Source: Solirubrobacterales bacterium (GTDB lineage Bacteria; Actinomycetota; Thermoleophilia; Solirubrobacterales; 70-9). Taken from it: 43,910 nucleotides of DNA. The notes beneath the pieces are model-generated. The model was not told the DNA's origin and did no database searches. It saw only the letters and a program-made list of their open reading frames with translations. Position numbers and translations under genes: made by a program. Position 1 is the first letter of the stretch; the number at the start of each line of letters is the position of its first letter. The stretch lies in NCBI GenBank assembly GCA_023958085.1, contig JAMLGI010000016.1, positions 1 to 43,910 on the forward strand, read 5' to 3'. Positions 1 to 24,936 of this stretch are shown here, one piece after another.

Positions 1-1147
1 GGTACTCGGCCAGGCTCTGAGCCTGATCGATCGTGAACCCGCCGGAGATCTGCGCACCCTGACGCCCGTCGATCCCGTCCGGGTTGTCGAAGAAGTTGAT
101 GATCGGCTTCGAGACGACCTGGCCGTCGAGGATGATCGCGAAGTTGCCGGAAAGCGGGGCTGCCTGGTCGGATGAAGTGACGCCGCCAATCGCGCGCGCC
201 TGTCCTTCCTGGGCGATGGTCCGGGTGATGTCCTGGAACGCCTTGCGCCCCTCGCCCGTGAACTCGAAGGTCACGTTGGGCTGGTTGAACTCGTCCAGGC
301 TCTGCTGCGGATCCTTGATCTCCGACCCGGAGAGGGCGGCATCGTCCTTGACCACGAAATAGCCGGCCTGCGACTGGTCGTCGATCGTCCGGCCGTCCGC
401 GTCGGTGGGCAGTTCGTCGACGACGATCGTGCCCTGCGGGACCTTCTTGACGATCCCCTTGTGCGGGATCGGACGGCCCTGGTCGTTGAAGTAGAGGTCT
501 TCCTTGGCGGTGACAGGCCCCGAGATCAACTCATGGGTCTTCTCGTTGAACAGGTAGTACTTGTCACCGGAGGTGCAGTTCTCGCAATTGTCGTTCCGCG
601 GCTGCTTCGAAGCGAGATTGACCGCGTCCCACACCGTCGGCTCGGCGCCCTGGTTGATCCAGGTCCGGTTGAAATCCTCGGTCGGCGGACGGCCGGCCTT
701 GATCCAGGCCTTGCGTACGTCCTTCAGAACCTGTTCCTGATCTGCTCCGGTCCCGACCAGGCTGAGGTCGCGGGCCGGTCCGATCAGGTTGTCCTGCCAG
801 TTGTAAAAGTAGAGGCGAGCCGGTTTGGTCGCACATTCGGTTGCGGTACCGACGTTGGTGGCTCCCGGAATGCCGACCGAAATCTGGTCGGCGCCGAGAC
901 GGGAGACCTCGATCTCGGAGACGCCGAGCTTGTCGCAGCCCGAGCGGATGATGTCCACCGAGCGGTCCATCGCATCGGATGTGACTTCCTTGACCTGCGG
1001 GGTCGGACGGCCCTGCAGGGTCAGCTCGATGCCTCCCTGGAGGTCGAGTCCCAACTGCGTCGGCTTCTTCAGGCAGACGACCGCCGAAACGATCACCAGA
1101 CCGAGCACAAACAGCAGCACGAATATGTTGCGGCGCCTGCCTCCCAT
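1..1147 (-). CDS. secD: Protein translocase subunit SecD (3' part missing at window edge)
   Basis: SecD is a membrane subunit of the Sec complex that works with SecF and the proton motive force to help exported proteins leave the SecYEG channel. The reading frame is open from the ATG at 1147 to the window edge, giving 382 residues without a stop. After a basic start it has one membrane helix (about residues 8-26), then the family motif GLDLQGG at 33-39, and then the large periplasmic part. The C-terminal membrane helices would lie beyond the edge. It begins 12 bp after the stop of the zinc-ribbon/PAS gene and is probably co-transcribed with it. Order yebC-ruvCAB-secD is the actinobacterial one, but no yajC is seen between ruvB and secD. 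Identity is secure; whether secF follows cannot be seen. Confidence 0.93.
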   Translation of the reverse strand, partial: MGGRRRNIFVLLFVLGLVIVSAVVCLKKPTQLGLDLQGGIELTLQGRPTPQVKEVTSDAMDRSVDIIRSGCDKLGVSEIEVSRLGADQISVGIPGATNVGTATECATKPARLYFYNWQDNLIGPARDLSLVGTGADQEQVLKDVRKAWIKAGRPPTEDFNRTWINQGAEPTVWDAVNLASKQPRNDNCENCTSGDKYYLFNEKTHELISGPVTAKEDLYFNDQGRPIPHKGIVKKVPQGTIVVDELPTDADGRTIDDQSQAGYFVVKDDAALSGSEIKDPQQSLDEFNQPNVTFEFTGEGRKAFQDITRTIAQEGQARAIGGVTSSDQAAPLSGNFAIILDGQVVSKPIINFFDNPDGIDGRQGAQISGGFTIDQAQSLAEY

Positions 1148-8846: not shown

Positions 8847-9497
8847 TCAGTTCCTGACGGTGCGGCGGCGCCGAAGCAGCAGCGCGCCGCCACCCACTGC
8901 CAGCACCGCCAGCATCAGGAAAGGCAGAACCGGCACCTCATCGTCACGCCCCTGCCAGTAGAGGGTCCCGTTGATCTGCGCCGGTTCGCCTCCGACCCGG
9001 AGCGGGATGGTGTAGGGAAAGATCTCGGTCCTCTCCGATTCATCCTTCACCTGGGGTGGCACTCCGTTACCCATGTAGTGGGAGCGATGGTCATGCCACT
9101 CGAATCGTCCGTCGGTATCAACCTGCTTCCAGTCCGGCTTCGCATCCTTGTCGGCCCGGGCCGGTATTTTCACGTTCGCGAACCGATCTTCGTTCTTGTA
9201 GTGGGTAGGTGAGTTCAGGTTCACCTCAACCGTCCCGTCGGCCAGGATCCGGGCGTACGGTTCACCGTCATAGCCGAGGATCTCGACCTCCCTGCCGGAG
9301 CGGTTCTCAAGCACTACGTGATCGTCGAAGTTCACGACCTGAGCCGTCAGGCCGTCAGCCAGCCGGGCGGGAGTGATCGAACTTATTACCGAACGGTAGT
9401 CCGAATTGCCCTGATGCGCGTGGGCCGTCGCTGTCACCGTGCCCACGATGGCGAGGGCCAGCAAGAGAAGGCCCGCGACTGACTTGAGGAACGCCAC
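8847..9497 (-). CDS. Secreted, membrane-anchored protein with His-rich motif
   Basis: A 216-residue protein with a Sec signal peptide (hydrophobic about 8-24, likely cleavage AHA|HQG near residue 27), an extracytoplasmic beta-rich domain, and one C-terminal membrane helix (about 190-208) followed by RRRR, so the domain faces outward. The motif WHDHRSHYMG and the His just after the predicted cleavage site recall extracytoplasmic metal-handling proteins, but I cannot name a family. Start is GTG at 9497, with TAGACT ending 7 nt before it. Confidence 0.72.
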   Translation of the reverse strand: MAFLKSVAGLLLLALAIVGTVTATAHAHQGNSDYRSVISSITPARLADGLTAQVVNFDDHVVLENRSGREVEILGYDGEPYARILADGTVEVNLNSPTHYKNEDRFANVKIPARADKDAKPDWKQVDTDGRFEWHDHRSHYMGNGVPPQVKDESERTEIFPYTIPLRVGGEPAQINGTLYWQGRDDEVPVLPFLMLAVLAVGGGALLLRRRRTVRN

Positions 9498-9504
9498 GGC
9501 GGCC

Positions 9505-9510
9505 AGTCTA
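9505..9510 (-). promoter_or_regulatory. -10 element TAGACT, leaderless promoter of the secreted protein gene
   Basis: TAGACT ends 7 nt before the GTG start at 9497. The same hexamer at the same spacing precedes dnaG (15712-15717). Confidence 0.6.
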
Positions 9511-9594
9511 CCCGTACGCTTCGTCCGCGAAGACTACCCTTCGGGGAGTATCGATCCGAGGGCTGCCGGCCCTTCACCGAGAGGAGACTCCGAA

Positions 9595-10530
9595 TTGGCT
9601 CACCCCCCCGGCCCCGAGCAGAGCGAACCCGGTCGTGCGTCTCCGGCCGAGTCCGGCCGAGCGAAGAACCCGATCACGGCGACCGTCTTCAGTGACCCTG
9701 CCTGCCCATTCGGCTACTCGGCGAATCCGGTCCTCAGGACACTCGAGTGGCGCTACCGCGATCAGATCACCTGGGATCTGGTCACGATCGGCCTTTCCGA
9801 CCCGGAGAACCCCTCTCCCTACGGCCCCGCGGAGCAGGCTGCCGGGTGGATTGAATTCAGGGAGCGGTACGGGATGCCGTTCGCGGCCGAACCCAAGGCC
9901 CGATCCTTCACCACCGCACGTGCCTGCCAGACGATCGCCTCCGCCCGCCTCTCACACCCCGGCAGCGAGTGGCGCGTTTTCAGGACCTTTCAGTTGCTTC
10001 ACTTCAATACTCCCCTGCTGCTCGACGATGACGACCATCTCGCCGAGGCCCTGGCCACGGTTCCCGGAATTGACGCAGCGGCGGTCGCCGCCCGGGTTGA
10101 CTCGACCGAGGTCCGGGCCGCGTATCTGACCGACCACAGTCTCGCCCGCCGCGCCGGTCGCGGCCCGGCGTGGCTTCAGGGGCGCACTGCCGATTCGCCC
10201 CAGGGACCGCGCTACACGGCCCCCTCGGTGATCTTCAGCCGGGAAGGACAACGCTGCGAGATCGGCGGGTTCCAGCCGATCGAGGCCTACGACGTGGTGA
10301 TCGCCAATCTCGATCCGGGCCTGAACCGGCTCGACCCGGCCGAGGATCCGCTGGACGCCCTGCGCCTCTATCCCGCCGGGCTGACCACCAGTGAGGTCGC
10401 CTCGCTTCAGTCACCGGGTTCCGAGGCTCCAGACCGTGGCCGCACCGAGCGCGAGCTGGTCCGTCTGGTCGGCTCCGGCCGGGTGCGACGGGTCCCGCTG
10501 GGCAGCGACGCCCTGTGGCTCACTTCCTGA
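9595..10530 (+). CDS. DsbA/FrnE-family thioredoxin-fold protein
   Basis: A 311-residue protein. The N-terminal 25 residues are Pro/Gly/Ser-rich. A DsbA-like domain then has FSDPACPFGYS (C37-P-F-G40), where the second cysteine of the usual CxxC is replaced by Gly. The helical insert and the PSVIF cis-Pro region follow. A C-terminal segment from about residue 260 (LTTSEVASL to ELVRLVGSGRVRRV) looks like a small winged helix. With a single active-site Cys it may be an isomerase or glutathione-transferase-like enzyme rather than a dithiol oxidase. Start is TTG at 9595, supported by GAGGAG at about 9581-9586; upstream starts would overlap the divergent gene. No signal peptide, so it is likely cytoplasmic. 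Confidence 0.78.
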   Translation: MAHPPGPEQSEPGRASPAESGRAKNPITATVFSDPACPFGYSANPVLRTLEWRYRDQITWDLVTIGLSDPENPSPYGPAEQAAGWIEFRERYGMPFAAEPKARSFTTARACQTIASARLSHPGSEWRVFRTFQLLHFNTPLLLDDDDHLAEALATVPGIDAAAVAARVDSTEVRAAYLTDHSLARRAGRGPAWLQGRTADSPQGPRYTAPSVIFSREGQRCEIGGFQPIEAYDVVIANLDPGLNRLDPAEDPLDALRLYPAGLTTSEVASLQSPGSEAPDRGRTERELVRLVGSGRVRRVPLGSDALWLTS

Positions 10531-13913: not shown

Positions 13914-15704
13914 TCATTCCACGCTCTCGTGATCCTCTGCACGAAGCACCGACTCGGCCAGGGTCGACCGCTTGCGGTGAAGCTCGGCGAGGGTCGCGTG
14001 ATCGCCCCGGTCGCTGCTCTCCCGGATCTCGTCATCGAGGGCCAGCAGTTCGAGTTCCATGAAGTTCCTCCGGATCGAACCGCTGCCCACCCGGTCGGGG
14101 TCAACCCGGGCGGTCAGGGCAGCGATCAGGCGGCGCAGATCGTGGTCATCGGGATCGAGTCCGGCCGCCGGGTCCTCAAGGTGATCCTGAAGCCAGGCGA
14201 CCGTCCGCTCGATCAAGGGAGAAGAGAGGTGTCGCGCTTCCAGCCGACGGAGCCACTCGGCTCCCTCGTCCGGGCGTGAGACGCACATCGCCAGCAGCGA
14301 CCGTTCGGTGCGCTCACGCTTGGTCAGCAGGGACCCGGGCCGGGCCGGAGCCGTGGCATCCACATCGGGCCGGGATCCCGGACCGGCCTCTGCCCCGGTC
14401 CCGGTCGGCGCCTCTGCGATCCGGGCAGCTACCACTCCCGGCTCGATCCGCAGTCGTTCCGCGGCCCTTCGGCTCAGCTCCTGGCGGGCCGCCCCGTCCG
14501 GCACGGTGGCCAGCACCGGGGCGATCTCGGCCATCCCCCGATCACGATCCCGGGGTGACTCGCTGTCGACCCCGCCCAGGATCAGATCGAGCCGGAACTC
14601 GGTCAGTTCGACCGCCGAATCAACCAGTTGACGAAAGCGGTCCGCTCCGCCATCGGTGGTCACCATCTCGGCCGGGTCGGTGCCGGCCGGCATCGCTGCC
14701 ACCAGGATCCGCAGTCGGCGCCGGGCCGCGATCTCCCCGGCCCGAACCATCGCTTCCTGGCCGGCAGTGTCGGCGTCGAGGGCCAGGATCACGGTGTCGG
14801 TCCGGGCGGAAAGCTGGGCCAGCTGCGACTCGGTGACCGAGGTCCCCATTGCCCCGACCGCTTCGGTAAACCCGACCTGGTGAAGCGCGATCACATCGGT
14901 GTACCCCTCGACCAGGATCGCCCGTCCACGCTTGCCGATCGACCAGCGGGCGCGATCGATCCCGTAGAGGACGTCGCTCTTGTGAAAAAGCTCACCTTCA
15001 GCCGAGTTCAGATATTTCGGTTGCTGATCCGGCCTCGTGGCACGGGCCCCGAAGCCGATCACCCGATCCCGGACGTCCCGGATCGGAAAGGTGATCCGGG
15101 CCCGAAAACGGTCGTAGTGGCCTCCCTGGCGCCCCCTGGTGGCGAGTCCGACCCGTTCCAGTTCCGGCACCCGGTACCCGGCCCGCTGGCTGCGGACGAG
15201 GAGCGTGTCCCAGGCGCTGGGGGCGTAGCCGACCCCGAACTCGGCCAGGATCTCCGGGTCGAGGCCACGATCGGCCAGGTAGCTGCGGGCCCTGCCCGCC
15301 TCCGAACCCTCCTTCAGCACGTTTTCGTAGAACAGCGCTGCCCGACCCATCAACTCGATCAACCTGGCGCGCTCGGACCGGCGCCGTTCAGCCTCGGGGT
15401 CCTCCTCCTCGCGGGAAAGCTCGATCCCGTACCGCTCGGCCAGCAGTTCAACCGCTTCCGGGAAGTCGATGCCTTCCACCGCCATCACGAAATCGAACAG
15501 GTCGCCCCCCACCCCGCAACCGAAGCAGTAGTAGAGCCCGTCGGCCTGGTTCACCGAGAAGGAGGGTGTTCGCTCGTCGTGGAACGGGCAGAGACCGGTG
15601 TGTCTGCCTCCCTGTTGACGCAGGTCGGTGTGGGCGGAGGCAAGCTCCACCAGATCGGCCGCCGAACGGACCTGCTGAATCGTTTCGTCGCTGAACCGGG
15701 ACAG
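13914..15704 (-). CDS. dnaG: DNA primase DnaG, probable CTG start
   Basis: DnaG makes RNA primers at the replication fork. The protein (596 residues from the CTG) has the N-terminal zinc finger (C39, H42, C60, C63 in CPFHDERTPSF and CFGCGVGGD), then the primase core, and the TOPRIM domain with VEGYTDV and LDADTAG, and a C-terminal DnaB-binding region. The canonical start nearest to the zinc finger is GTG at 15650, but this removes the conserved helix RFSDETIQQVRSAADL. In frame before it the only plausible start is CTG at 15704, exactly 7 nt after TAGACT, the spacing seen in the other leaderless genes. The dGTPase-like gene ends 52 bp upstream. Confidence 0.93.
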   Translation of the reverse strand: MSRFSDETIQQVRSAADLVELASAHTDLRQQGGRHTGLCPFHDERTPSFSVNQADGLYYCFGCGVGGDLFDFVMAVEGIDFPEAVELLAERYGIELSREEEDPEAERRRSERARLIELMGRAALFYENVLKEGSEAGRARSYLADRGLDPEILAEFGVGYAPSAWDTLLVRSQRAGYRVPELERVGLATRGRQGGHYDRFRARITFPIRDVRDRVIGFGARATRPDQQPKYLNSAEGELFHKSDVLYGIDRARWSIGKRGRAILVEGYTDVIALHQVGFTEAVGAMGTSVTESQLAQLSARTDTVILALDADTAGQEAMVRAGEIAARRRLRILVAAMPAGTDPAEMVTTDGGADRFRQLVDSAVELTEFRLDLILGGVDSESPRDRDRGMAEIAPVLATVPDGAARQELSRRAAERLRIEPGVVAARIAEAPTGTGAEAGPGSRPDVDATAPARPGSLLTKRERTERSLLAMCVSRPDEGAEWLRRLEARHLSSPLIERTVAWLQDHLEDPAAGLDPDDHDLRRLIAALTARVDPDRVGSGSIRRNFMELELLALDDEIRESSDRGDHATLAELHRKRSTLAESVLRAEDHESVE

Positions 15705-15711
15705 GCATCCG

Positions 15712-15717
15712 AGTCTA
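15712..15717 (-). promoter_or_regulatory. -10 element TAGACT, leaderless promoter of dnaG
   Basis: TAGACT ends 7 nt before the CTG codon at 15704. An ATG nearer to the hexamer (3 nt away) is in the wrong frame for DnaG. Confidence 0.6.
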
Positions 15718-15756
15718 GACCTACGGCCCGGATCGAGCCGGTCCTGGTGGTTCGGG

Positions 15757-16755
15757 TCAGAGCCGGGATCGCTCCGGAACGTAGAGCTCGGTGAAGTGGG
15801 CGATGCAGTAACGGTCGGTCATGCCGGCCAGCAGGTCGGTGACCCGCTGCACCGGCTCGGGTTCGGTTCCCGGGGTCTCCTCCGGACGTTCGATGTAGTG
15901 GTCGAAGAGAATCGCCAGCGCCCGGTGCACCCGTTCATGTTCGGCCCGCGCCTTCGGCCCGAGATACACCCGCTGGAACATGAACTCGCGGAGCCGCAAC
16001 ATGGCCTGTCCCATGTGCTCCGACTGGGCGAGGACTTCGCTCCCGGCCGATCGTTCGACGATGTCGGTGACCAGCGCATCGATCCGGGCCGCTCCGGTCG
16101 GTCCGAGCAGCGAGATCTCCTCTCCGGGCAGGTCATCCTCGGTCAGGATCCCGGCTCTGAGGGCATCGTCGATGTCGTGATTGATGTAGGCCACCCGGTC
16201 GACCAGGCGTACGATCTGTCCTTCCAGCGAGGCCGAACGTTCCGGACCGGTGTGCTTGAGGATTCCCTCCCGCACCGGCTGGCACAGGTTGAGGCCGCGC
16301 CCCTCCCGCTCCAGTTCATCCACCACCCGCAACGAGTGGACGTTGTGCTTGAAGCCGGCCCCCCCGTGGCGGCGGTTGGCGGCATCCAGTGCCTGCTCAC
16401 CGATGTGGCCGAACGGGGGGTGGCCAAGGTCGTGGCCGAGCCCGACGGCTTCGGTCAGATCCTCGTTCAGGCCCAGAGCCCGGGCGGCCGTTCGGGCGAT
16501 CCCGGAGGTCTCGAGAGTGTGGGTCAGCCGGGTTCGGTAGTGATCGCCTTCCGGGGCGACGAAGACCTGGGTCTTGTGCATCAGCCTCCGGAACGACTTG
16601 CTGTGGACGATCCGGTCCCGATCGCGCTGAAACGGTGTCCTGAGGGGACTGTCCGGTTCCGGCCGAACCCGGTCCGCCGGGTAGGACGGAACCGCATGGG
16701 GCGAAAGCCACTCGGACTCACGACGGCGGACCGCCGCCTCGAACTCCCCGTTCAC
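15757..16755 (-). CDS. dgt: Deoxyguanosinetriphosphate triphosphohydrolase-like protein (HD domain)
   Basis: A 332-residue HD-domain dNTP triphosphohydrolase, which hydrolyses dNTPs to nucleoside and triphosphate. Motifs: FRRLMHKTQVF, then the metal ligands H79 (LTHTLE), and H108-D109 (GLGHDLGHPPFGHIGE), and a later YINHDIDDA. The start GTG at 16755 overlaps the recO stop as GTGA. The recO-dgt-dnaG order is found in mycobacteria and relatives, with dNTP supply next to primase. The substrate preference of this type (type 2) is not fixed by the sequence. Confidence 0.92.
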   Translation of the reverse strand: MNGEFEAAVRRRESEWLSPHAVPSYPADRVRPEPDSPLRTPFQRDRDRIVHSKSFRRLMHKTQVFVAPEGDHYRTRLTHTLETSGIARTAARALGLNEDLTEAVGLGHDLGHPPFGHIGEQALDAANRRHGGAGFKHNVHSLRVVDELEREGRGLNLCQPVREGILKHTGPERSASLEGQIVRLVDRVAYINHDIDDALRAGILTEDDLPGEEISLLGPTGAARIDALVTDIVERSAGSEVLAQSEHMGQAMLRLREFMFQRVYLGPKARAEHERVHRALAILFDHYIERPEETPGTEPEPVQRVTDLLAGMTDRYCIAHFTELYVPERSRL

Positions 16756-22435: not shown

Positions 22436-24873
<2,438 letters not shown>

Positions 24874-24936
24874 CCCGGCAGGGATCAGAACCGCCCCAAC
24901 CGCCGTGCCGACCAGGATCCCGGCCCAGACGACGGC

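What the first reader, a model, noticed from the sequence alone, without database searches (positions are those of the whole stretch)
15700..15720. dnaG appears to start at CTG on a leaderless transcript
Homology requires the conserved N-terminal helix (RFSDETIQQVRS), which no ATG, GTG or TTG precedes in frame. The only codon that fits is CTG at 15704, exactly 7 nt after TAGACT. The nearest canonical start, GTG at 15650, would remove 18 conserved residues. An ATG next to the hexamer is out of frame. CTG initiation on an essential gene is rare.
Basis: partly seen in the sequence, partly recalled or inferred. Interest (0 to 1): 0.68.

Follow-up and report, generated by a model that had tools for sequence, protein, structure and literature searches.

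The report
Leaderless primase gene starting at CTG
The gene for DNA primase, an essential replication enzyme, appears to start at the rare codon CTG at the very 5' end of its message, and five sister species do the same, although the one comparable actinobacterial experiment found that CTG does not work there.

Summary
On the minus strand, dnaG (13914-15704) has no ATG, GTG or TTG in frame before GTG 15650. CTG 15704-15702 lies exactly 7 nt after TAGACT.

In the window alone the motif is at chance level (2 sites, 2.1 expected). Comparison decides it. In 17 of 17 same-genus genomes with dnaG the aligned codon is NTG: CTG in 6, GTG in 3, ATG in 8. All have TANNNT 6-10 nt upstream and no Shine-Dalgarno core. 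In two CTG genomes an in-frame stop lies four codons upstream with no canonical start between. Among the six CTG genomes pN/pS drops from 1.0 before the CTG to 0.22 after it, so codons 2-17 are translated. Sequencing error is excluded. The initiator tRNA found is ordinary.

About a third of conserved starts here look leaderless, nearly all ATG; dnaG was the only clear leaderless CTG in the stretches compared. In M. smegmatis only ATG and GTG worked at a leaderless start, so a CTG kept on an essential leaderless gene is a notable exception to a stated rule.

Leaderless transcription is inferred from promoter spacing; there are no RNA data. In passing, a neighbouring gene appears to start at GTC/GTA.

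The parts
15702..15704 (-). CTG start codon of dnaG
   Evidence: NTG at this column in 17/17 genus genomes, CTG in six; pN/pS boundary
15712..15717 (-). -10 hexamer TAGACT of the inferred leaderless promoter
   Evidence: TANNNT 6-10 nt upstream in 17/17
15705..15711 (-). 7-nt spacer CGGATGC; the mRNA 5' end is expected at its last bases or at the CTG
   Evidence: sequence; TSS inferred from -10 spacing
13914..15704 (-). dnaG coding sequence from CTG, 596 aa plus stop
   Evidence: TIGR01391 408 bits; Pfam DnaG domains; length
15648..15650 (-). GTG, first canonical start in frame; would delete 18 residues
   Evidence: constraint on the 16 codons after CTG argues against it
15706..15708 (-). out-of-frame ATG, 3 nt after the hexamer, probably upstream of the mRNA 5' end
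   Evidence: inference from spacing
15757..16755 (-). dgt (deoxyguanosinetriphosphate triphosphohydrolase), upstream gene; its stop is 52 nt before the CTG
   Evidence: NF002327 420 bits; distance

Best explanation
dnaG has its own sigma70-type promoter in the dgt-dnaG junction. Its -10 box, TAGACT, places the transcription start at or within about 2 nt of the CTG, so the mRNA is leaderless or nearly so. A ribosome, probably 70S, binds the 5' end and starts with ordinary fMet-tRNA on CUG. The protein begins (f)Met-Ser-Arg-Phe-Ser-Asp-Glu, the Met probably being removed before Ser. The weak start would keep primase output low; that purpose is speculation. Shown by sequence: the position of the start codon, its recurrence in six species, translation of the N-terminal helix, the conserved -10 spacing and the lack of a Shine-Dalgarno core. 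Inferred: the exact TSS, 70S binding, Met as first residue, low expression.
For: 17/17 genomes have NTG at this column, CTG in G000, G002, G004, G005, G009 and G017. In G005 and G009 an in-frame stop lies four codons upstream with no canonical start between. pN/pS among the CTG six: 1.007 for codons -16..-1, 0.22 for 1..16, 0.224 for 17..60. G000 against the other 16: 1.08 upstream, 0.384 for 1..16. TANNNT sits 6-7 nt before CTG in all six, while the distance from the dgt stop varies from 9 to 52 nt; no Shine-Dalgarno core in any of 17. Leaderless starts are common in the genus: 40 of 118 aligned conserved starts in G000 carry the motif at 5-10 nt. The one match in G000 to an initiator-type anticodon loop reads CAT.
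Against: No RNA or peptide data. RNA polymerase prefers a purine at +1 and CTG begins with C, so a 1-2 nt leader is likely (general knowledge). In M. smegmatis only ATG or GTG worked at a leaderless start (PMC4633059). Divergence is high (pS about 0.5-0.7), so pN/pS values are rough. The window genome and probably all relatives used are MAGs or draft assemblies.
Confidence: 0.8

Rival explanations
1. CTG is the start, but ribosomes reach it by re-initiation after the dgt stop, or on a longer leadered mRNA, rather than on a leaderless transcript.
For: dgt is directly upstream on the same strand; in G002, G005 and G009 its stop is only 9-10 nt before the CTG. A neighbouring gene appears to use stop-coupled GTC/GTA starts. 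In sampled genera outside this one dnaG mostly abuts or overlaps the dgt stop.
Against: The stop-to-CTG distance varies (9, 9, 10, 35, 46, 52 nt) while the -10 distance stays 6-7 nt; no Shine-Dalgarno core; 52 nt in the window itself.
Confidence: 0.14
2. Translation starts downstream, at GTG 15650 (or at the conserved ATG at codon +17 in relatives), and the upstream stretch is not translated.
For: GTG 15650 is the first canonical start; all five other CTG genomes have ATG at codon +17.
Against: pN/pS of 0.22 over codons 1-16 in the CTG genomes against 1.0 upstream of CTG; NTG at the column in 17/17; loss of the N-terminal helix seen in solved primases.
Confidence: 0.04
3. A base error or small indel in the assembly hides an ATG.
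For: ATG 15708 would come into frame if one base of the following run were missing; the genome is a draft MAG.
Against: Five other genomes have CTG at the same column with different flanking DNA and no such out-of-frame ATG.
Confidence: 0.02

Closest known systems
Leaderless genes with a TANNNT -10 box in Actinobacteria and Deinococcus-Thermus (PMC3160421, PMC12340547)
   Same: TANNNT about 6-10 nt before the start codon, no Shine-Dalgarno, a large share of the genes in the genome
   Different: The start codons in the passages read here are ATG or GTG; this one is CTG
Leaderless RTG initiation in mycobacteria (PMC4633059)
   Same: Same broad phylum, same leaderless layout
   Different: In their zeocin selection only ATG or GTG at +1 gave translation, and CTG was not enriched even at a leadered site with a Shine-Dalgarno
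Rare CUG start codons in bacteria (PMC5622118)
   Same: CUG replacing AUG at an orthologous start
   Different: There only 2 of 61,358 ancestral AUG starts switched to CUG; here CTG is present in 6 of 17 species at one essential gene
Non-canonical starts found by proteomics in Deinococcus deserti (from memory; that paper was not found in the held library)
   Same: Non-ATG/GTG/TTG starts in a leaderless-rich, GC-rich genome
   Different: Other phylum; not checked here

Membership tests
DnaG primase | TIGR01391 above its curated cut-off, with zinc ribbon, DNAG_N and Toprim domains | tested here: met
   408.3 bits over a cut-off of 283.6; Pfam domains
Leaderless gene | -10 box at leaderless distance from the start codon | tested here: met
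   7 nt in the window; 6-10 nt in 17/17
Leaderless gene | No Shine-Dalgarno upstream | tested here: met
   No GGAG/GAGG/AGGA upstream in any of 17
Leaderless gene | mRNA 5' end at the start codon | not testable with these tools
   Needs 5' RACE or differential RNA-seq
Leaderless gene as defined in mycobacteria | Start codon is ATG or GTG (RTG) | tested here: not met
   CTG in the window and five relatives; RTG rule from PMC4633059. It has the layout of a leaderless gene but breaks this rule
CUG-initiated gene | CTG at the orthologous start column with no canonical alternative upstream | tested here: met
   None upstream in G000, G002, G005 and G009; G004 and G017 have one 29 and 11 codons upstream
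CUG-initiated gene | N-terminal peptide starting at the CTG | not testable with these tools
   Needs proteomics
Termination-coupled (re-initiating) gene | Start kept at a short, fixed distance from the upstream stop | tested here: not met
   9, 9, 10, 35, 46 and 52 nt in the CTG genomes

The most novel reading that the evidence does not exclude
This genus has relaxed start-codon discrimination as a lineage trait: CUG is a working, evolutionarily stable start on a leaderless essential gene, and GUC/GUA is a working start in a stop-coupled gene 9 kb away. Initiation rules drawn from E. coli and mycobacteria would then not hold here.
Probability: 0.4. Interest if true: 0.72.

Novelty: new variant of a known kind. 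Interest (0 to 1): 0.55.

Why it matters
Leaderless mRNAs are thought to need AUG, or AUG and GUG in mycobacteria, because codon-anticodon pairing is almost the only contact that selects the start. A CTG kept across several species on an essential leaderless gene says that rule is not general and gives a natural substrate for asking what replaces the lost pairing. In practice, annotation limited to ATG/GTG/TTG would truncate DnaG by 17-18 residues here and in most of the related CTG species.

Tried and rejected
1) Bare motif count in the window: chance level, so not used as evidence. 2) SSB (G000 C1:159779 region): CTG after TAGATT, rejected because the conserved ATG is preceded by AAGGAG. 3) A class II aldolase-like gene (G000 C1:339109): CTG overlapping a stop; relatives have GTG, TTG or CTG near there and the alignment is ragged, so inconclusive. 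4) Variant initiator tRNA: one match in the genome to the initiator anticodon loop, reading CAT. 5) Missing IF3: present. 7) The tree could not decide between one origin of CTG with reversions and several origins (3-4 changes; G000 on a long branch). 8) The many 'no shared start' pairs look mostly like antisense frames or misplaced alignment ends and were not all resolved. 9) No paper on a CTG start in dnaG was found.

Full report
WHAT IS THERE. dnaG is on the minus strand, its stop codon ending at 13914. Reading upstream, GTG 15650 is the first ATG/GTG/TTG in the entire stop-to-stop frame, yet recognisable DnaG sequence continues upstream (RFSDETIQQVRSAADL). CTG 15704-15702 follows TAGACT (15717-15712) by 7 nt. 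The protein from CTG is 596 aa and is DnaG by TIGR01391 and Pfam domains. In the solved primase fragment 1d0q, chain residue 4 aligns with residue 3 counted from this CTG, so CTG gives a normal-length N-terminus.

CHANCE. TANNNT-N7-CTG occurs twice in the window with 2.12 expected. The motif alone proves nothing.

COMPARISON. The window is contig C16 of a 2.44-Mb draft genome. Its closest named dnaG relatives are mostly Solirubrobacterales, so the organism is probably one too (inference). Of 18 genomes held for the genus, 17 have dnaG. At the aligned start column all 17 have NTG: CTG in G000, G002, G004, G005, G009, G017; GTG in G006, G008, G016; ATG in eight. At all other codon columns from -10 to +20 NTG occurs in 0-2 genomes, apart from a conserved Met codon at +17. 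In G005 and G009 only three codons separate CTG from an in-frame stop, none of them a canonical start. G004 and G017 do have a canonical codon 29 and 11 codons upstream in the open frame, but the sequence between is not constrained as protein.

CODING CONSTRAINT. Among the six CTG genomes pN/pS is 1.007 for the 16 codons before CTG, 0.22 for the 16 after it and 0.224 for codons 17-60. For G000 against the other 16 it is 1.08 before and 0.384 after. Protein constraint therefore starts at the CTG, which argues against both a downstream start and an upstream one.

LEADERLESS LAYOUT. TANNNT lies 6-10 nt before the start in 17 of 17 genomes; shuffled upstream DNA gives 2.6% per genome. No Shine-Dalgarno core was found in any. 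The distance from the dgt stop to the start ranges from 9 to 52 nt in the CTG genomes while the -10 distance is 6 or 7. In G002, G005 and G009 the -10 box overlaps the dgt stop codon. CTG genomes have spacers of 6-7 nt and ATG genomes 8-10 nt; the separation is complete but not corrected for relatedness. In 118 aligned canonical starts between G000 and G010, 40 in G000 (37 ATG, 3 GTG, no TTG) and 43 in G010 (38 ATG, 5 GTG) carry TANNNT at 5-10 nt, 37 in both. Leaderless genes are thus common in this genus and nearly all start with ATG; dnaG was the only clear leaderless CTG in the stretches compared.

HISTORY. On the DnaG tree CTG is scattered over several lineages and needs 3-4 changes. CTG may be old in the genus with later return to ATG, or have arisen several times. 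Either way it persists between species whose DnaG proteins differ by about a third from that of the window.

MECHANISM. The likeliest route is a leaderless or near-leaderless mRNA bound at its 5' end by a 70S ribosome with fMet-tRNA. The initiator anticodon found is CAT and IF3 is present, so no altered tRNA or missing factor was found that would explain CUG use. The exact TSS and the purpose are inferred; a weak start to limit primase is a guess.

AGAINST WHAT IS KNOWN. In M. smegmatis a selection found that only ATG or GTG at +1 drives leaderless translation; at a leadered site with a Shine-Dalgarno CTG was not enriched either (PMC4633059). A start-codon evolution study states that leaderless mRNAs appear to require AUG and found 2 AUG-to-CUG switches in 61,358 (PMC5622118). 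A review says CUG and other codons are much less efficient than AUG on leaderless mRNAs in E. coli (PMC9031893). Structural work notes that initiation complexes on CUG are less stable than on AUG, GUG or UUG (PMC11497404). Leaderless genes with a TANNNT box are widespread in Actinobacteria and Deinococcus-Thermus (PMC3160421; PMC12340547). The present case is a new variant of a known kind: a conserved leaderless CTG start.

IN PASSING. A membrane protein gene at 24097-24936, next to an MctB-like gene (PF11382), seems to start at GTC 24933-24931. The same column is GTC, GTA, GTG or ATT in 12 genus genomes and ATG, GTG, TTG or CTG in 15 other members of the family; three more distant members could not be aligned there. 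pN/pS changes from 1.02 before to 0.34 after it in eight genomes with GTC or GTA. This start abuts or overlaps the upstream stop, so it would be stop-coupled, unlike dnaG.

Noticed in passing
window 24097-24936 (-), start candidate GTC 24933-24931: A multi-pass membrane protein gene (by eye MraY/WecA-like motifs; no Pfam hit) directly after an MctB-like gene has no ATG/GTG/TTG before its conserved N-terminus. The column is GTC or GTA in 9 of 12 genus genomes and ATG/GTG/TTG/CTG in 15 other family members; pN/pS falls from 1.02 to 0.34 there. It looks like a stop-coupled GUC/GUA start.
   Followed up: partly
L022 (G028, another genus of the family), dnaG start: dnaG seems to start at a CTG overlapping the dgt stop (CTGA), so CTG may start dnaG outside the genus too, but coupled rather than leaderless.
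   Followed up: no
dnaG loci of the 17 genus genomes (L112-L128): The -10 to start spacing is 6-7 nt in all CTG genomes and 8-10 nt in all ATG genomes; not corrected for relatedness.
   Followed up: partly
G000 C1:339109 (L205): Class II aldolase-like gene with a possible CTG start overlapping the upstream stop; relatives vary.
   Followed up: partly
window 9439-10530 (+): DsbA-like protein whose frame carries a long N-terminal extension; the relative G010 has a leaderless-looking ATG at the conserved start where the window has no canonical codon.
   Followed up: no
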